Notes under the pieces: generated by a model | What the model saw: only the letters and a program-made list of their open reading frames with translations | The model's database searches: none | What the model was told of the DNA's origin: nothing | Position numbers and translations under genes: made by a program | Shown: positions 1 through 38,990 of the stretch, one piece after another | Position numbering within the stretch: the stretch's first letter is position 1 | Layout: each line of letters begins with the position of its first letter | Assembly (NCBI GenBank): GCA_021824625.1 | Contig: JAKAKE010000068.1 | Coordinates: 1 to 38,990, forward strand | Direction: 5' to 3' | Source of the DNA: Bacteroidota bacterium | GTDB lineage: Bacteria > Bacteroidota > Ignavibacteria > Kapaibacteriales > UBA2268 | Length of the DNA: 38,990 bases

Positions 1-457
1 CATCCGCGGTTCGGCAAAAGTAGACTACATCGGCGATTCGGCAAAAGTAGACTACATCGGCGATTCGGCAAAAGTAGACTACATCGGCGATTCGGCAAAA
101 GTAGACTACATCGGCGATTCGGCAAAAGTAGACTACATCGGCGATTCGGCAAGTGTGAACTACATCCGCGGTTCGGCAAGTGTGAACTACATCCGCGGTT
201 CGGCAAAAGTAGACTACATCCGCGGTTCGGCAAGTGTGAACTACATCGGCGATTCGGCAAAAGTAGACTACATCGGCGATTCGGCAAAAGTAGACTACAT
301 CGGCGATTCGGCAAATATTTTGGGTTATTATAATTTTGATATTTCAAATATCAAAAACATTCAAGATAACGCCTTAGTCATTAATAAAAATAAAGATGCT
401 ATAAAAATTATAACATCAAAAGGCATCATTGAAAATATATATGATTTAATCAAATAG
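1..457 (+). CDS. C-terminal part of a 9-residue-repeat protein (open at the left edge)
   Basis: The frame is open from base 2, and an in-frame GTG at 155 is only an internal codon of the array. Eleven full 27-bp units (2-298) and a partial one encode I-[RG/GD]-SA-[KVD/SVN]-Y. A unique tail follows (about 317-457, ending IYDLIK). Period and composition suggest a beta-solenoid built from short repeats. The gene at 38474-38990 has a unique N-terminal domain followed by the same repeat in the same frame logic, so I infer one gene broken at the contig ends. Joining the ends directly would lose the frame: four bases (plus any multiple of 27) are missing. The stop lies 9 bases before the SSB-like gene, which has its own AGGAGG site. 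Function unknown. Confidence 0.8.
   Translation, partial: IRGSAKVDYIGDSAKVDYIGDSAKVDYIGDSAKVDYIGDSAKVDYIGDSASVNYIRGSASVNYIRGSAKVDYIRGSASVNYIGDSAKVDYIGDSAKVDYIGDSANILGYYNFDISNIKNIQDNALVINKNKDAIKIITSKGIIENIYDLIK
2..316 (+). repeat. 27-bp coding minisatellite, left block
   Basis: Eleven tandem 27-bp units plus a partial one. Units are almost identical at base level and differ only at two cassettes: CGCGGT/GGCGAT and AAAGTAGAC/AGTGTGAAC. The same array reappears at 38807-38990, where a third form, GGCGGT, also occurs. Such purity implies recent unit duplication or gene conversion. Confidence 0.95.
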
Positions 458-466
458 GAGGTAATT

Positions 467-988
467 ATGTCATTAGATTTAGAAGTAAAAGAAGAGGCGC
501 TTTTAACAGGCGAATCAAAGGCTGTTTGTTCACATGTTTACGATCTGGGAATTCAGGTTAGTACTTTCAACGGAAAAGATATTGAACAGCATAAAATCAT
601 GATCATGTTTGAATTGGAAAAACGAAGTAAGGAAACAAACAGAAGATTTCTTGTTAGCAAAGAATATACGCTTTCCAGTTCAAAACGGTCAAATCTCATG
701 AAAGATCTGGAATCATGGCGCGGAAAACCGTATGCAGTCGGCGATAAAATCGATGTTACAAAACTCATCGGAATCAATGCCAACCTTACAATCTCAGAGA
801 ATGATAAAGGGTTTCCTCTCATCGATAAAATTCTACCGCCAACCGGTGAAACTTTAAAAGCAGAAGTCAAAAGCGACTTTATGCCAGATTGGGTTTGGAA
901 AAAGATCCAACAGGGAAAATTTGAGAATCAAAATCATCTTAACCCATGGGCTGAAGAACAGAAAAACGATGATAAACCACCGTTTTAA
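467..988 (+). CDS. Probable phage single-stranded DNA-binding protein
   Basis: 173 residues, start preceded by AGGAGG at good spacing. The C-terminus is acidic and ends DDKPPF, like the DDDIPF tail that SSB proteins use to recruit partners. The body is a likely beta-rich fold. It resembles the phage replication protein family sometimes labelled NGO0469-like. It sits directly downstream of a RecA-like (Sak4-type) ATPase and the repeat gene and just upstream of Gp157, a typical recombination/replication block. SSB is inferred from the tail motif and neighbours, not from a recognised OB-fold motif. Confidence 0.6.
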   Translation: MSLDLEVKEEALLTGESKAVCSHVYDLGIQVSTFNGKDIEQHKIMIMFELEKRSKETNRRFLVSKEYTLSSSKRSNLMKDLESWRGKPYAVGDKIDVTKLIGINANLTISENDKGFPLIDKILPPTGETLKAEVKSDFMPDWVWKKIQQGKFENQNHLNPWAEEQKNDDKPPF

Positions 989-1006: not shown

Positions 1007-1504
1007 ATGCAGCTCTACAATATTGATAAGATGCTTGAGGATCTCTTTGACGAAATGGACAAATATGCTGAGGAACATGAAGGCATAGTTGATCAATCTT
1101 ATGTCGAACTTCTTGATATGCTCAATATGGCAAAAGATGAAAAGATTCTTAACATCGCAAAATATATGAAAGGACTTGACGTTGAAATAAAAGCCTTTCA
1201 GGAAGAGATCAAAAAACTTCAAGCAAGAAAATCAGCAATTGATAATAAATACGATTATCTTCACAATTATATTTGCAATCATGCTGATAAAGGTAAAAAA
1301 ATCCAGGACTCAACAACTGTTGTTTCATGGCGAAAAAGTGAACAGGTTGTTGTTGTTGATGATGTTGATGGATTACCGGAAATTTTTGTAAGAACCAAAA
1401 CCGTCAAAGAACCTGACAAGCAATTGATAAAAGAATCTTTCAAAATGGGAAATGAAGTTCCAGGGGCAAAGATCGTTGAAAACATGAATCTACAGATAAA
1501 ATAG
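1007..1504 (+). CDS. Siphovirus Gp157-family protein
   Basis: 165 residues with an AAGGAGGAA ribosome site. The order of parts matches the Gp157 family: a short acidic N-terminus, a central coiled coil (IKAFQEEIKKLQARKSAID), then a beta-rich C-terminal domain with a VVVDDVDGLPEIFV core and the closing EVPGA segment. Gp157 has been linked to phage resistance in Streptococcus thermophilus; its biochemical role is unsettled. It usually sits among SSB, recombinase and nuclease genes, as here. A strong terminator follows at 1517-1565. Confidence 0.8.
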   Translation: MQLYNIDKMLEDLFDEMDKYAEEHEGIVDQSYVELLDMLNMAKDEKILNIAKYMKGLDVEIKAFQEEIKKLQARKSAIDNKYDYLHNYICNHADKGKKIQDSTTVVSWRKSEQVVVVDDVDGLPEIFVRTKTVKEPDKQLIKESFKMGNEVPGAKIVENMNLQIK

Positions 1505-3702: not shown

Positions 3703-4228
3703 AATATTATTTATTTTGTTATTTATTGAGTTCAATCTATTTTCTGAAAGTTCAATACAAATAAATAACGAAGTTATTCGATTATCTTTTAAGTATAAAG
3801 TTAATCCAAATCTTGTTTTTGCAATAATTGAATGCGAATCAACTTTTAACGAGCGAGCAATTTCAAAAAATATAAGCGGCTCCGGGATGTCAATAGGCCT
3901 TATGCAGTTAAATACTTGTAATAGAAATTGGCCGTTATGCGATTATTTTAATGTTTCAAAGAATATCGAGGAAGGTGTTAAAACGCTGAAAGAATGTTTG
4001 GAATTATCAAAAGGCGATATTGATAAGGCTTTGATTTATTATAATTTTGGTTATGGAAATTATGAGATGAAAAAGAGACCCCTTCCGCAGATCACAATAA
4101 ATTATGTCAAGAAAGTAAAATCATACTACATTTATTATATGGGAAAAAAACAGGACATTCTGTCCGGTAGCGAATGTAGAATTATAAAGGTTTTAACATG
4201 GAGGAAAAACAATGTCAAAAACATATAA
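3692..4228 (+). CDS. Secreted lytic transglycosylase (SLT domain)
   Basis: 178 residues from the ATG at 3692. I prefer this start over an upstream extension because a signal peptide (MKYKILFILLFIEFNLFSES) begins there. The mature part has the SLT fold: VNPNLVFAIIECESTFN (catalytic Glu in IIECES), a GLMQLN motif and a YNFGYGN motif, all hallmarks of Slt-type transglycosylases. It would cut peptidoglycan in the periplasm. It lies among early genes, not in the lysis or tail cassette, so a role at entry, superinfection or envelope remodelling is possible. The 3' end overlaps the J-domain gene. Confidence 0.8.
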   Translation: MKYKILFILLFIEFNLFSESSIQINNEVIRLSFKYKVNPNLVFAIIECESTFNERAISKNISGSGMSIGLMQLNTCNRNWPLCDYFNVSKNIEEGVKTLKECLELSKGDIDKALIYYNFGYGNYEMKKRPLPQITINYVKKVKSYYIYYMGKKQDILSGSECRIIKVLTWRKNNVKNI

Positions 4229-4715
4229 AGCATCAACGTTTTATGAAAAAAAACTTGAAAAAGTCATGGAGCGTTTTAATATAACAAAAGATGATTATCT
4301 TTATAATTGGGATCGCTTTGGATGCTGGGTGCAGTTCAAATATAAGGGTGAAATGTATCGTTTTGATCATAGTGTCGAGAATGCAAAACAGCATGGCCAT
4401 GAAATCAATTATGGATCTGACTCTTTTGCTCAATTGATTCTTGCCCTTGAGGATCTGGCCCGGATTGCAGAACGCGGAATTTATGATATACAAAAATGGA
4501 TTGTTGGAATGAGATATCTCCCCGCTCCGGATTTACCATCGTTTTTCCGTGCTTTAGGATTTTCTGAAATGCCTACCATTGAAGATGTAAAAAAGAAATA
4601 TAAAATGTTGGCCCGTAAACTTCATCCGGATGCAGGAGGAACATCAGAAGATTTCAACACTTTACAAAATGCTTATGAAAAATGTTTAGGTTATCTAAGT
4701 GAAAAGAATGAATAA
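4212..4715 (+). CDS. J-domain (DnaJ-like) protein
   Basis: 167 residues. An unrecognised N-terminal region (1-105) is followed by a C-terminal J domain (about 108-165) with the essential HPD at 138-140 (KLHPDAGG) and a preceding basic helix KKKYKMLARK. J domains stimulate the ATPase of host DnaK. No Gly/Phe or zinc region is present, so the N-terminus probably supplies the target. Phage J proteins can redirect Hsp70 to replication complexes. It overlaps the transglycosylase gene by 17 bases and has a GGAGGAAAAAC ribosome site. Confidence 0.85.
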   Translation: MSKTYKASTFYEKKLEKVMERFNITKDDYLYNWDRFGCWVQFKYKGEMYRFDHSVENAKQHGHEINYGSDSFAQLILALEDLARIAERGIYDIQKWIVGMRYLPAPDLPSFFRALGFSEMPTIEDVKKKYKMLARKLHPDAGGTSEDFNTLQNAYEKCLGYLSEKNE

Positions 4716-7350: not shown

Positions 7351-8409
7351 ATGGAAATACGACTATTGTCGCTTTTTAAGCGGTCTGACAGGAGATACTA
7401 TACTGCGGAATATGAATTAAATCAACAAAAACATTCAGTAAGTCTCAAAACAGACAATGAAAAAGAAGCCTGGGAAAGATGGCATAAGATTGCAAGATTC
7501 TATGATGAAGACAATATCTTAGTTGTAAAAAAAATCAATCTCGATCTTGCATTGAATGAATTTATTTTATCACGTGATAAAACAATTCAGGAAAGTACAA
7601 AGGTCTCAGATAAATATCGAATAAATTTTTTCAGAAATTATTTTAAAAAAAATAATATTATTGACACAAGTCAACTTGATGAATCATTTATAGATAATTT
7701 TTTCTCGAATCTTAACAATAAGGATTTATCCAATAAAACAATAAATAATTATGTAACGGTATTGAATATGTTCTTTAAGTTTTGTGAAGAAAAAAAATAT
7801 ATCCGGATTATATTTAATCTAAAAAAGTTCTGGAAGAAAAGAAAAAAAGAAAAGATAAAAATAATCGATATAAAAGAAGCCCGATTTATTATTGAAAAGA
7901 TAAAAGAAATTCAAAATATAAAAATTAAAACATTTCTACTTTTCCCGTTTTTCACCGGATTACGGCATTCGGAAGTCAGAGGATTGAATCGGAAAAACAT
8001 TGATTTTAAAAATAGAATTATCTCGGTTTGCGAAAAAATGACGGTTGGAAATAAAAAGCCAATATCATTATTGAAGTCAAAAGCAGCGTATCGCAAGGTT
8101 CCTATAATGAAGGAATTCGAAGTGTATCTTAAAGAATACCTGGACTTTAATAAAAACGAATATCCTTTTATCTCAATGTCAAACGATGCTACAATGTGGC
8201 ATATCAGCAAACTGAATAAAGATCATAAAACTGCTTATAACTTTCATCAAGGAAGGCACTTTTTTGCATCGCTTTTAATCGATAATAAATTCAGTATGAA
8301 AGAAATACAAACCATTCTCGGACACGAAAATATTTCAACTACCCTTGATACTTACGGGCATCTTATCCGGGAATGGGATATTAAAAAGTTCGATGATATT
8401 GATTTTTAA
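7351..8409 (+). CDS. int: Tyrosine recombinase integrase
   Basis: 352 residues. An N-terminal arm-binding region (1-60) is followed by a core-binding SAM-like domain (about 65-155) and a catalytic domain (170-345). Catalytic residues visible: R205 (TGLRHSEVRG), H299-R302 (FHQGRHF), H325 (LGHENISTT) and nucleophile Y335 (LDTYGHL). No ribosome site precedes the ATG, and the promoter places transcription start at the codon, so the message is effectively leaderless. It integrates and probably excises the phage at attP 7116-7308. It converges with the tail genes. Confidence 0.93.
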   Translation: MEIRLLSLFKRSDRRYYTAEYELNQQKHSVSLKTDNEKEAWERWHKIARFYDEDNILVVKKINLDLALNEFILSRDKTIQESTKVSDKYRINFFRNYFKKNNIIDTSQLDESFIDNFFSNLNNKDLSNKTINNYVTVLNMFFKFCEEKKYIRIIFNLKKFWKKRKKEKIKIIDIKEARFIIEKIKEIQNIKIKTFLLFPFFTGLRHSEVRGLNRKNIDFKNRIISVCEKMTVGNKKPISLLKSKAAYRKVPIMKEFEVYLKEYLDFNKNEYPFISMSNDATMWHISKLNKDHKTAYNFHQGRHFFASLLIDNKFSMKEIQTILGHENISTTLDTYGHLIREWDIKKFDDIDF

Positions 8410-33734: not shown

Positions 33735-34427
33735 ATGGAATGGAACGATAAAATTGAGACAATAATGCGTGTATGTAAATTAAAACAAAAAGAATTAGCT
33801 GAAATTATCTCCGTTTCACAAGGATATTTAAGCGATATTTTAAATAGCAGATCAAAAAATCCAACTTTTTCTTTTATGTATAATTTAGTTGAAAAATTAA
33901 AAATAAGTCCAGATTGGCTTTTAACCGGCGAGGGATCTATGTTCAAAAATCAGGAAATCTATCTCCAGAAGGATCAGCGCATTATTATTGCTGATACCAA
34001 TATTGAAAGCGATGTTGTTTTGATTTATGGAGGAACTAATAAAGCCTCTGCAGGTACCGGACAGGAATTATTGAATAATTCTTCCGAAAAAGCGATTCCG
34101 ATGCTTGAAAAGTTCATTTTACCGTTTAAAGGGCGGGAAGCCGGCTGGGTGGAAGTAGTCGGGGATTCCATGGTAAATGAAAAGCTGTTTGACGGCGATA
34201 TCGTTATTTATATCAAGGGCCTTATCCGAAATGACGGCATTTATGTCATCCAGTATGCCAATGAAGTTATGGTAAAACGCCTGGAATTCGATCCTATCGA
34301 TAAAAAGATTTATATAAAATCAGCAAATGAAAAGTATGCTTACCGGGATAAAATTGTAAATGCCAATGATGAAAACCTTGTTATTTTGGGAAAAGTCAAA
34401 GCCTGGGCACATCAGCATCCGTATTGA
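33735..34427 (+). CDS. CI/LexA-type phage repressor
   Basis: 230 residues, AGGA seven bases before the ATG. N-terminal helix-turn-helix (about 14-60: LKQKELAEIISVSQGYLSDILN). Linker 70-135 includes SAGTG with the probable Ala106-Gly107 cleavage bond. C-terminal S24 peptidase: nucleophile S145 (VVGDSMVNEKLFDGDIV) and general base K181 (EVMVKRL). It should bind operators at PL and PR, hold the prophage silent, and self-cleave in the host SOS response. AntA (6288-7118) is a likely antagonist. It converges on the small gene at 34433 with only five bases between. Confidence 0.9.
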   Translation: MEWNDKIETIMRVCKLKQKELAEIISVSQGYLSDILNSRSKNPTFSFMYNLVEKLKISPDWLLTGEGSMFKNQEIYLQKDQRIIIADTNIESDVVLIYGGTNKASAGTGQELLNNSSEKAIPMLEKFILPFKGREAGWVEVVGDSMVNEKLFDGDIVIYIKGLIRNDGIYVIQYANEVMVKRLEFDPIDKKIYIKSANEKYAYRDKIVNANDENLVILGKVKAWAHQHPY

Positions 34428-34666: not shown

Positions 34667-35656
34667 TTATTGCCATCCAGCATAAACTGTTTCCTCAATA
34701 ATTTGGTTCATTATTCCCATTTGTGTCTGAACCTGCATTTCTGATATTTTAACTTTTCTTATCGCTTTGTCTATTTTATTTGTACTTTCAATAATAGCTA
34801 AAATTTGAGTGGCATTAGAAAATCTTGGCATTGATGGCTGTTGAGCTAATAAAATAGATGGATCATAAGGAATGCCTAGTTCCATTTCTTTTATATAATC
34901 TGTATAAAGATCCCAGATTAAATTTTCTACTTTTGATGTTTTATTTATTTGGGATCCTAATAAATTATACGCTTCCGTCGGATAAATTAAATAATCATGT
35001 GATCCTAATTTTTTAGATAAAGTATTTACTATTTTTTTAATTTTTTTATTATCATTTCTATGTTGTTTTAAAAGTTCGGTAGCTAGCATTTCTATTTGTT
35101 GTCTTGTCCTATAAACATCTCCAAGAGATAATGGATGAACTTTTTGAGCTAAAATACTTAATAATGCATTTTTATCTGCATGCCATTCCTTTGTCACTAA
35201 AGATAAATATCCAGCTACACTTTCTACACTTAATGGAATTATTTGCGGCGGAGTTTGAGGATTAAGCTGAACAGCCGGATTTAAAGGCCGGCTTATACTT
35301 GGATCTATAGGACTTAAAGTTGCCCCCTTAGTCATTATTATTTCTTTTGAACCAAGCGCAAATAATGTTCCTGCACTATGGCAACAATCAGGAATTAGAG
35401 TTCCAATATTATTTGAATATTCTCGAAAAAGCCTTGATAATCCAAAAGCCGTTATTATATCGCCTCCATGAGTAAAAATAAAAAGATCAATATTTTTATA
35501 CTGATTATTACCTAATTGATTTACAAATATCGGTAAAATATCTTTTTGCATTTGAGATGATGCATTAGGTCTATCAGATGTTAAATAAGTAAAAACCTTA
35601 GAATCTCTTAATTTCTCTATTTCTTTAATAATTTCAATTCTTTCATTTCGAGCCAT
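34667..35656 (-). CDS. ClpP-like serine protease of the SDH proteinase family
   Basis: 329 residues with features of the serine dehydrogenase proteinase (SDH_sah, ClpP/crotonase fold) family. An FTHGGD oxyanion-type loop (HGG 63-65) is followed by the nucleophile elbow CCHSAGTLFALG (S94) and the SPIDPS acidic element (D118); a helical C-terminal region follows. No signal peptide, so cytosolic. It lies between repressor and PR, transcribed apart from lytic genes, where lysogenic accessory and defence genes usually sit. Ribosome site AAAAGGAG. Substrate unknown. Confidence 0.7.
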   Translation of the reverse strand: MARNERIEIIKEIEKLRDSKVFTYLTSDRPNASSQMQKDILPIFVNQLGNNQYKNIDLFIFTHGGDIITAFGLSRLFREYSNNIGTLIPDCCHSAGTLFALGSKEIIMTKGATLSPIDPSISRPLNPAVQLNPQTPPQIIPLSVESVAGYLSLVTKEWHADKNALLSILAQKVHPLSLGDVYRTRQQIEMLATELLKQHRNDNKKIKKIVNTLSKKLGSHDYLIYPTEAYNLLGSQINKTSKVENLIWDLYTDYIKEMELGIPYDPSILLAQQPSMPRFSNATQILAIIESTNKIDKAIRKVKISEMQVQTQMGIMNQIIEETVYAGWQ

Positions 35657-35870: not shown

Positions 35871-36020
35871 ATGTCAGGTTGTTATGGTGGATCAACAGAA
35901 GATCGGTATTTTGAACGAATTCTCAATGATTATCTTGATGAAGATGATGACGACGGCCTGGAACATGTTTCTGATGAAGATGAATCATCAATGTCCTATT
36001 TGACAGAGAAATTTTTATAG
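35871..36020 (+). CDS. Small acidic leader protein (49 residues)
   Basis: MSGCYGGSTEDRYFERILN... then DEDDDDG and a Ser/Asp-rich end, strongly acidic. First gene from PR, leader AGGACA similar to the repressor's. It ends in TAG (36018-36020), which overlaps the 5' end of the tRNA. Small DNA-mimic or inhibitor proteins have such composition; I only infer that. No family assigned. Confidence 0.6.
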   Translation: MSGCYGGSTEDRYFERILNDYLDEDDDDGLEHVSDEDESSMSYLTEKFL

Positions 36021-36090
36021 CGGGATAGTGTACTGGTAACACACCGGGCTCATAACCCGGAACATGCCGGTCCGAATCCGGCTCCCGCGA
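36019..36090 (+). tRNA. tRNA-Met (CAU), initiator-like, somewhat degenerate
   Basis: Cloverleaf: acceptor GCGGGA/TCCCGC (6 bp) with A1-G72 unpaired, D-stem GTGT/ACAC, anticodon stem CCGGG/CCCGG with loop CTCATAA (anticodon CAU), T-stem GCCGG/CCGGC with loop TCCGAAT. Three G-C pairs at the anticodon stem base and the open 1-72 pair are initiator features; a pyrimidine-purine 11-24 pair is not. T-loop position 55 is C instead of U. No encoded CCA. Could be a functional tRNA-fMet variant or a decaying or regulatory tRNA-like element. Confidence 0.65.
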
Positions 36091-36110
36091 ATCCGGCTCC
36101 CGCGAATCCG
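36075..36110 (+). repeat. Tandem duplication of the tRNA 3' end
   Basis: AATCCGGCTCCCGCG occurs at 36075-36089 (inside the tRNA) and again at 36090-36104, followed by AATCCG. The second copy is identical. Confidence 0.9.
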
Positions 36111-37310: not shown

Positions 37311-38474
37311 ATGAGTGGATTTAAGAAAGCGACAAAAAAACAAGCAAAATTAAGGTTAGCGGTTTTCGGACCGTCAGGATCAGGAAAAACCTTTTCAGCA
37401 CTCAGGATTGCTAAAGGAATGAATGGGAAAACAGCCGTGATTGATTCAGAACGTGGATCCGCATCAAAGTATTCTGACAGGTTTGATTTTGATGTTTTAG
37501 AACTTCAACCATGTAATATTGATAATCTGGTAAAAGGAATCGGTGATGCTGAGGAAGCTGAATATAATATTCTGATTATAGACTCGTTAACCCATGCATG
37601 GCAGGAACTTCTCGAAGAGATAGATAAACTGGCTAATGCAAAATATAAGGGCAATTCGTGGGGTGCCTGGAATGAAGGTACACCAAAGCAAAAAAAACTT
37701 GTTAATGCCATTTTGAATTATAACGGGCATATAATTGCCACTATGAGATCTAAGACGGAATGGACTATTGAACAGACACAAAGTGGGAAAACAAAGCCGG
37801 TTCGTGTTGGCCTTGCGCCTGAACAGGGAAAAGGCATAGAATATGAATTCGATATGCTTATGGAAATCACTCCGGAGCATTTTGCAAATATCATTAAAGA
37901 CAGAACCGGAATGTTCCAGGATCAGATAATCGAAAAACCAGATGAAAAGTTCGGGAAAAAACTTGTTGAATGGCTTAATTCCGGCGAAAAAGTTGAGATT
38001 CAGGAACAGAAAAAACCAGAGTCAAAACTTAATCCAGGTCTTCAAATGTATGTCGATAGTTTGAAGTCGTATATGGACACCTTTGAACTTCCGGAAGCGG
38101 CTTATACCAATCTTGAAAAGGAAATAACCGAAGAAAAAATCACAGAAAAGCGGCTTGATGAATACAAGGCTCAATGCGAAAAGTTTCCACTTAAGGCCAA
38201 GTATATGGCTACAGAGGAAGAAATTCTTTTGTTTCTTCACGGTTTAACAGAGATCGATATATCCGGAAATCAGGAACTTCTTAATAAATCAATCAATCTA
38301 GAAAAATCAATGAAGATTTCAAAATCACTTTTACAAAACTTGATTGAAGAATCAAAAACCTGCCCGAAGAAAGTTCCGGCTAAGTTAGGCATTGATAGCA
38401 ATGAGAAGGCTCCAGAATTCGGCTTTGAGGCAAAAGAAGTTGAAGATAAGAGTTTACCGAAGGGGGTGTTATAA
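37311..38474 (+). CDS. RecA-like ATPase (Sak4-type single-strand annealing/recombination protein)
   Basis: 387 residues from the ATG at 37311 (GGAGGA upstream; an earlier in-frame ATG at 37197 lies in the previous gene). Walker A GPSGSGKT (20-27), AVIDSERGSASKY, and Walker B YNILIIDSLTHAW. The C-terminal quarter is a helical extension. Matches phage AAA_24-type ATPases such as Sak4, which work with SSB in phage recombination; an SSB-like gene lies just across the contig junction. The stop overlaps the repeat-gene ATG (TAATG). Confidence 0.8.
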   Translation: MSGFKKATKKQAKLRLAVFGPSGSGKTFSALRIAKGMNGKTAVIDSERGSASKYSDRFDFDVLELQPCNIDNLVKGIGDAEEAEYNILIIDSLTHAWQELLEEIDKLANAKYKGNSWGAWNEGTPKQKKLVNAILNYNGHIIATMRSKTEWTIEQTQSGKTKPVRVGLAPEQGKGIEYEFDMLMEITPEHFANIIKDRTGMFQDQIIEKPDEKFGKKLVEWLNSGEKVEIQEQKKPESKLNPGLQMYVDSLKSYMDTFELPEAAYTNLEKEITEEKITEKRLDEYKAQCEKFPLKAKYMATEEEILLFLHGLTEIDISGNQELLNKSINLEKSMKISKSLLQNLIEESKTCPKKVPAKLGIDSNEKAPEFGFEAKEVEDKSLPKGVL

Positions 38475-38990
38475 TGTGTAAATTTTTTAGCGCGATCATA
38501 ACAAAAGAAAATATTTATTTTGATTATGATCTGGATTCTCATGAAGACATAATAAAAAAATTCAATCTGGTTGAGGGTGAAATTCATCACGGCTTTAATT
38601 TTGTCAGAGTTGAATTAACCCCAAACGATGAAAATCTTTTCAATCATAATATGGATAATTGGTCATTGCATGTAGATCAAGATTATACTCCGGATTGGTT
38701 CAATCATGATCAAATAGAGGATGAAGTAAAAATTAAACTAAAAGAAGTGATTGAAAATCGTTTTGTTCTTGGAGAAATGAAAGAAATAAATCAAGGTAGA
38801 TGGTTTATCGGCGGTTCGGCAAGTGTGAACTACATCCGCGGTTCGGCAAAAGTAGACTCCATCGGCGGTTCGGCAAGTGTGAACTACATCGGCGATTCGG
38901 CAAAAGTAGACTACATCGGCGATTCGGCAAAAGTAGACTACATCCGCGGTTCGGCAAGTGTGAACTACATCGGCGGTTCGGCAAAAGTAG
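38474..38990 (+). CDS. N-terminal part of the 9-residue-repeat protein (open at the right edge)
   Basis: A unique N-terminal domain of 111 residues (MCKFFSAIITKENIYFDYDL..., ending EINQGRWF) is followed by six full repeat units and a 22-base partial one (38807-38990). Each unit is I-[GG/RG/GD]-SA-[SVN/KVD]-Y. The frame stays open to the last base. The N-terminal domain has a YTPDWF segment and an acidic helix; I recall related phage proteins in which this domain leads into similar repeats, but know no function. ATG overlaps the ATPase stop. Continuation is at bases 1-457 after a gap of four bases plus any number of 27-base units. Confidence 0.8.
   Translation, partial: MCKFFSAIITKENIYFDYDLDSHEDIIKKFNLVEGEIHHGFNFVRVELTPNDENLFNHNMDNWSLHVDQDYTPDWFNHDQIEDEVKIKLKEVIENRFVLGEMKEINQGRWFIGGSASVNYIRGSAKVDSIGGSASVNYIGDSAKVDYIGDSAKVDYIRGSASVNYIGGSAKV
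38807..38990 (+). repeat. 27-bp coding minisatellite, right block
   Basis: Six full 27-bp units plus a partial one, same sequence classes as at 2-316, with GGCGGT as an extra variant and one D-S exchange (38834-38860). Confidence 0.95.

What the first reader, a model, noticed from the sequence alone, without database searches (positions are those of the whole stretch)
2..316. Minisatellite with two independently shuffled cassettes
Units differ almost only at RG/GD/GG and KVD/SVN positions, and combinations are mixed. Nucleotide identity is far above what protein constraint needs. This suggests active unit exchange in a phage gene placed between a Sak4-like recombinase and an SSB-like gene, whose products could drive the shuffling.
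Basis: partly seen in the sequence, partly recalled or inferred. Interest (0 to 1): 0.7.

Follow-up and report, generated by a model that had tools for sequence, protein, structure and literature searches.

The report
Shuffling repeat array in phage protein
This is part of a phage gene whose repeated tail is rebuilt by recombination, and in related phages the same front domain instead carries a tail hypermutated by a reverse transcriptase, so the protein looks like a general platform for making variable binding surfaces.

Summary
The repeat array is real and larger than reported. Bases 2-315 and 38807-38990 are two pieces of one 27-bp array. The 38,990-bp contig, a temperate phage genome, breaks inside it. 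The gene (start 38474, stop 457) has an unannotated ~111-aa N-domain, at least 18 nonapeptide units predicted with high confidence to form a beta-solenoid, and a short C-terminus. Six unit types mix two cassettes in all four combinations.

About 96 other loci carry the same N-domain. Most have nonapeptide arrays. In two contigs with near-identical flanks the arrays differ by exactly six units, and recent paralogues share N-domains but not arrays. Homogeneous arrays vary almost only non-synonymously (65:4), while the N-domain is under purifying selection. One strongly supported nested clade (27 loci) has replaced the array with a DUF6273/C-lectin-like tail; 24 of the 27 have template repeat, Avd-like gene and reverse transcriptase. 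This suggests that the array is a variable recognition module evolving by unequal recombination plus diversifying selection.

Driving by the adjacent Sak4 and SSB genes is not: most array relatives lack a detected Sak4 nearby. The bound partner and the N-domain's activity are unknown.

The parts
38474..38806 (+). N-terminal domain (111 aa, MCKFFSAIITKENIYFD..RWF) of the repeat protein; family-wide conserved C2, S6, K11, H23, R45, E47, P50, W63, D68-Q69-D70, P73, W75
   Evidence: ORF; homologues; alignment A2; no Pfam, PHROG, NCBIfam or PDB match
38807..38990 (+). first piece of the 27-bp array (6.8 units) running to the contig end
317..457 (+). C-terminal segment and stop of the repeat protein (..NILGYYNFDISNIKNIQDNALVINKNK..IENIYDLIK*), related to the C-terminus of L009 (NIADNAIVIKRSND..IENIFDLQK)
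37311..38474 (+). Sak4-like AAA protein directly upstream
   Evidence: PHROG 1366 E 8e-87, PHROG 124 Sak4 E 2e-11, PF13479 E 1e-26
467..988 (+).
1007..1504 (+). Gp157 / Mu Gam-like protein
   Evidence: PF05565 E 4e-31, PHROG 253
33735..34427 (+). CI-like repressor
   Evidence: PHROG 4 E 6e-37
7351..8409 (+). tyrosine integrase (temperate phage)
   Evidence: PF00589 E 1e-20

Best explanation
The array is the variable recognition module of a non-structural protein of a temperate phage, encoded in its early region. A conserved N-terminal domain holds a beta-solenoid built from 9-residue units. Unequal recombination or slippage between near-identical 27-bp units deletes, duplicates and recombines units. 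This homogenises the invariant codons, while selection keeps amino-acid differences at the non-core positions, so arrays with new surface patterns arise quickly. In a nested clade of relatives the same N-domain instead carries a C-lectin-like domain hypermutated by a diversity-generating retroelement, which suggests that variability of this part is the selected trait. Shown: the array, the single split gene, the family, unit turnover between close relatives, the non-synonymous bias, the DGR replacement. Inferred: that the array binds a changing partner inside the host cell, probably in a phage-host or phage-phage conflict.
For: Array and split gene. Early-region context (Sak4, Gp157, CI repressor, integrase; structural genes on the other strand). 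Family of 96 related loci. Copy-number change in register between near-identical contigs. Paralogues with near-identical N-domains and different arrays (L022/L023; L094/L108 in one genome of a named Clostridium porci strain). Twelve homogeneous arrays have 65 non-synonymous and 4 synonymous changes against 16.1 synonymous expected, P = 1e-4; N-domain pN/pS is mostly 0.07-0.35. Entropy peaks at unit positions 1, 2 and 8 and is lowest at 4, 6 and 9. Model pLDDT 93.6, pTM 0.85, one strand per unit. DGR relatives: TR mismatches mostly at adenines in 24 of 27, Avd-like gene and RT in 24 of 24 of those loci, RVT_1 in 11 of 13 DGR-type and 0 of 32 other records. DGR clade has support 100/96, nested among array types. 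19 of 66 repeat-type contigs and 0 of 27 DGR-type contigs end inside the gene, P = 0.001.
Against: No binding partner, expression or phenotype is known. The L037/L045 difference has a 100-nt identical tract at its junction, so short-read assembly collapse could mimic it. The window's own array shows 6:1 non-synonymous to synonymous, not significant alone, and over all arrays, including the diverged ones, the bias is only P = 0.06. The non-synonymous count is on few independent mutations. The N-domain has no assigned fold or function.
Confidence: 0.66

Rival explanations
1. Neutral minisatellite: the units expand and contract by slippage and are homogenised by drift; the solenoid is a spacer or stalk whose exact sequence does not matter.
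For: Copy number ranges from about 3 (L009) to at least 18 units. Tandem repeats slip without any special machinery. In the most diverged arrays pN/pS is near 1 or below.
Against: Homogeneous arrays keep amino-acid differences and almost no synonymous ones (65:4). The same N-domain is served by a DGR in a sister clade, which a stalk would not need. Core positions 4, 6 and 9 stay constant while positions 1, 2 and 8 vary.
Confidence: 0.2
2. The neighbouring Sak4 and SSB-like proteins are a dedicated engine that shuffles the array.
For: They are adjacent in the window; SSB and exonuclease genes also flank the L037/L045 arrays that differ by six units.
Against: Sak4 relatives were found near only 5 of 60 relatives with nonapeptide arrays; many others, including the paralogues L022/L023 and L094/L108, show none in the held flanks. 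Gene content fits a general replication/recombination region.
Confidence: 0.08
3. The variation is an assembly artefact: short reads from a mixed population were stitched across identical repeats.
For: The window's contig and 19 of 66 repeat-type contigs end inside the gene, so assemblers do fail here; the ends do not join in phase.
Against: Collapse can change copy number but not create new unit sequences. Paralogues in one genome of a named strain (L094/L108) have N-domains 97% identical but different units. Open reading frame and phase are kept throughout.
Confidence: 0.06

Closest known systems
Diversity-generating retroelement targets with DUF6273/C-lectin tails, including non-structural targets (Quimbyvirus, PMC8008677; tentaclins, PMC10743442; Faecalibacterium prophages, PMC11792537; survey PMC8144416)
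   Same: The same N-domain carries such a DGR-mutated tail in 24 of 27 homologues of that type examined. Variation is concentrated in a C-terminal binding-type module. Quimbyvirus has a DGR target outside the structural module.
   Different: The window's protein has no C-lectin tail, no TR/VR and no RT on its contig. Its variation lies in a tandem array. The cited papers, as far as read or searched here, do not describe this N-domain or the array form.
BACON-domain tandem repeats in crAss-like phages (PMC6949934)
   Same: Tandem protein repeats in gut phages that evolve by duplication and exchange.
   Different: BACON repeats are whole domains in tail-associated proteins; here the units are 9 residues, near-identical in DNA, in an early-region protein.
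Pentapeptide-repeat and other beta-solenoid proteins (PDB 2g0y; bactofilin 2n3d)
   Same: Predicted solenoid geometry with one strand per short repeat; VIA-align Z 6.3, rmsd 2.4 A over 77 residues to 2g0y and Z 5.3 to bactofilin.
   Different: Period 9 rather than 5; no Pfam pentapeptide match; Z below 8 is not proof of relationship.

Membership tests
Diversity-generating retroelement (the window's own locus) | Reverse transcriptase near the target | tested here: not met
   RVT_1 found in the genome only on C105, none on the window's contig C21
Diversity-generating retroelement (the window's own locus) | Template repeat with adenine-directed variation in the target | tested here: not met
   The only related copies are tandem units of the array; differences include G/C, C/G and G/A sites and linked 4-nt haplotypes
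Diversity-generating retroelement (class c homologues, e.g. L032, L047, L081) | RT + Avd + TR/VR with mismatches at TR adenines | tested here: met
   24 of 27 loci have a TR with mismatches mostly at A and none or almost none with A in VR; Avd-like ORF and RT in all 24 of these; RVT_1 in 11 of 13 records searched
DUF6273 / C-lectin variable domain (class c homologues) | Match to PF19789 or C-lectin fold | tested here: inconclusive
   PF19789 E 0.0006, below its cut-off, for L032 and weaker for L047; AlphaFold model pLDDT 87 with weak C-lectin matches (CD23, CD94) and one strong match, an IgA peptidase
Pentapeptide-repeat protein | A(D/N)LXX repeats of period 5, Pfam Pentapeptide | tested here: not met
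   Period is 9 and no Pfam pentapeptide match
This N-domain family | Conserved MC..S....K, (D)SH, RxExxP, W, DQDxxPxW motif | tested here: met
   Window has all of these residues; 68% identity over the N-domain to L009, 25-48% to others

The most novel reading that the evidence does not exclude
Temperate phages carry a previously undescribed intracellular variable-recognition protein. One conserved effector domain can be loaded either with a recombination-shuffled beta-solenoid array or with a DGR-hypermutated lectin domain, or more rarely with LRR-like or MORN-like repeats, giving two interchangeable engines of diversity for the same biological task, probably recognition of a fast-changing host-defence or rival-phage target.
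Probability: 0.45. Interest if true: 0.86.

Novelty: new variant of a known kind. Interest (0 to 1): 0.72.

Why it matters
It would show that phages diversify a non-structural protein in two unrelated ways on one scaffold, with repeat recombination standing in for a retroelement. That gives a route to what DGR targets outside phage tails are for, a question left open for Quimbyvirus (PMC8008677), because the shared N-domain is small, conserved and testable. It also explains a recurrent assembly break in phage contigs.

Tried and rejected
Exact DNA pattern for the window's own units in IMG/VR: no match. N-domain against Pfam, PHROGs, NCBIfam and the PDB by sequence: nothing credible. Foldseek of the window model: no match with E below 0.001; the VIA-align rows cover residues 54-172 only, so the N-domain fold remains untested. 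N-domain in relatives of the host: only the window's own genome among 60 relatives and 197 genomes of its class, so no allelic arrays from sister species. A second viral scan with a Clostridia profile gave few new loci. Considered and rejected for the window itself: DGR (no RT or TR), pentapeptide repeat (wrong period), and coding of the other strand or frames (open frames on the array are by-products of a 27-bp period free of stops). Non-synonymous excess over all non-duplicate arrays is only P = 0.06; it is strong only in the homogeneous ones.

Full report
What is there. The finding at 2-316 is a perfect-phase 27-bp tandem array (11.7 copies). The window is a whole 38,990-bp contig (C21 of the genome), and its last 184 bases are 6.8 more units of the same array. 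Read around the junction, one gene starts at 38474, runs through the array and stops at 457; the ends are 4 nt short of phase, so the true number of units is unknown and at least 18. The contig is a temperate phage: integrase, CI-like repressor, antirepressor, portal, capsid, maturation protease and terminase. The gene lies in the early region, between a Sak4-like gene and a 173-aa gene of unknown family, followed by Gp157.

The observation. Seventeen complete units fall into six types. Variation is at GG/RG/GD and KVD/SVN, plus a single Y-to-S. All four combinations of RG/GD with KVD/SVN are present. Since the KVD/SVN cassettes differ by four linked nucleotides, recurrent mutation is an unlikely source of the mixing.

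The family. The 111-aa N-domain has no match in Pfam, PHROGs, NCBIfam or the PDB, but 71 viral and 25 genome loci encode relatives. C2 is present in 94 of 95 sequences counted, and the one exception (L081) has also lost H23, which hints at a functional pair. Behind this domain lie different tails: nonapeptide arrays in about 60 loci; LRR-like repeats of about 20-25 residues in L029, L030, L031, L035 and L063; MORN repeats in L064 (PF07661 E 3e-12); and a DUF6273/C-lectin-like tail in 27.

The DGR relatives. In 24 of the 27 loci with the lectin-like tail there is a template repeat roughly 500-600 bp downstream of the variable 3' end, with mismatches falling mostly on template adenines and almost never with A in the variable copy. 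All 24 have an Avd-like gene and a reverse transcriptase downstream. RVT_1 is in 11 of 13 such records and 0 of 32 records with other tails. The N-domain tree puts this type in one clade (100/96), nested within array-bearing proteins, so an array was most simply replaced by a DGR tail once. This is the strongest clue to function: DGR targets are known binding proteins whose variability is selected, so the array occupying the same place is most likely a variable binding module too. That step is inference.

Turnover of arrays. L037 and L045 come from two metagenomes with flanks 99.2-99.96% identical, and their arrays differ by exactly 162 bp, six units, in register. The junction lies in a 100-nt tract shared by both endpoints, as expected for recombination between direct repeats; assembly collapse can give the same picture and is not excluded for this pair. 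Paralogues avoid that problem in part: L022/L023 have N-domains 99.7% identical but different unit orders, and L094/L108, both in one Clostridium porci genome, have N-domains 97% identical but units as different between arrays as within them. Repeat-type contigs end inside the gene in 19 of 66 cases, DGR-type in 0 of 27 (P = 0.001).

Selection. In 12 arrays with mean unit identity of 88% or more, 65 changes are non-synonymous and 4 synonymous, against 16.1 synonymous expected (P = 1e-4). Over all non-duplicate arrays, including diverged ones, the bias is weak (P = 0.06). The N-domain of the same genes is under purifying selection, with pN/pS mostly 0.07-0.35. Variation is highest at unit positions 1, 2 and 8 and lowest at 4, 6 and 9, the small and hydrophobic positions that would form a core. 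AlphaFold2 models the window's N-domain plus its first units at pLDDT 93.6, with one strand per unit; the best solved neighbours are short-repeat solenoids at moderate Z.

Mechanism. Near-identical units recombine unequally; homogenisation removes silent differences, and selection keeps useful residue changes. Adjacent recombination genes may help, but Sak4 relatives were found near only 5 of 60 array-type relatives and SSB relatives near 8, so a dedicated engine is not supported. What is bound, and what the N-domain does, is unknown. The early location and the lack of any sign of a virion protein point to an intracellular role in conflict with the host or other phages, which is inference.

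Literature. DGR targets with DUF6273 tails (PMC10743442, PMC11792537), DGR targets outside the structural module (PMC8008677) and tandem-domain evolution in phage tail proteins (PMC6949934) are known. Eight searches of the held library found no account of this N-domain or of arrays and DGR tails alternating on one domain; papers outside that library were not searched.

Noticed in passing
window 36018-36110: tRNA-Met gene whose 3' part carries a 15-bp direct duplication (CGAATCCGGCTCCCG, two adjacent copies plus a partial one), possibly a trace of an attachment site or recombination.
   Followed up: partly
L081 1-90 of the protein (locus 3001 onward): The only homologue without C2 has also lost H23 (MGKF.., NESYSDLL), suggesting that C2 and H23 act together.
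   Followed up: partly
L047 702-2192 and relatives: Eleven loci, all of the DGR type, have a gene with weak similarity to GmrSD_N (below cut-off), and ten a weakly sigma-like gene, just upstream, a possible defence-related neighbourhood.
   Followed up: partly
L022 and L023: Two near-identical N-domains with different arrays lie a few kb apart in one viral contig, a possible donor and recipient pair for array exchange.
   Followed up: partly
window 34667-35656: ORF with a PHROG match of unknown function and a weak ATP-dependent protease match, next to the CI-like repressor on the opposite strand.
   Followed up: no
window 4212-4715: Phage-encoded protein with a C-terminal DnaJ domain (PF00226) in the early region.
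   Followed up: no
L064: Same N-domain followed by MORN-type repeats, a further kind of repeat tail.
   Followed up: partly
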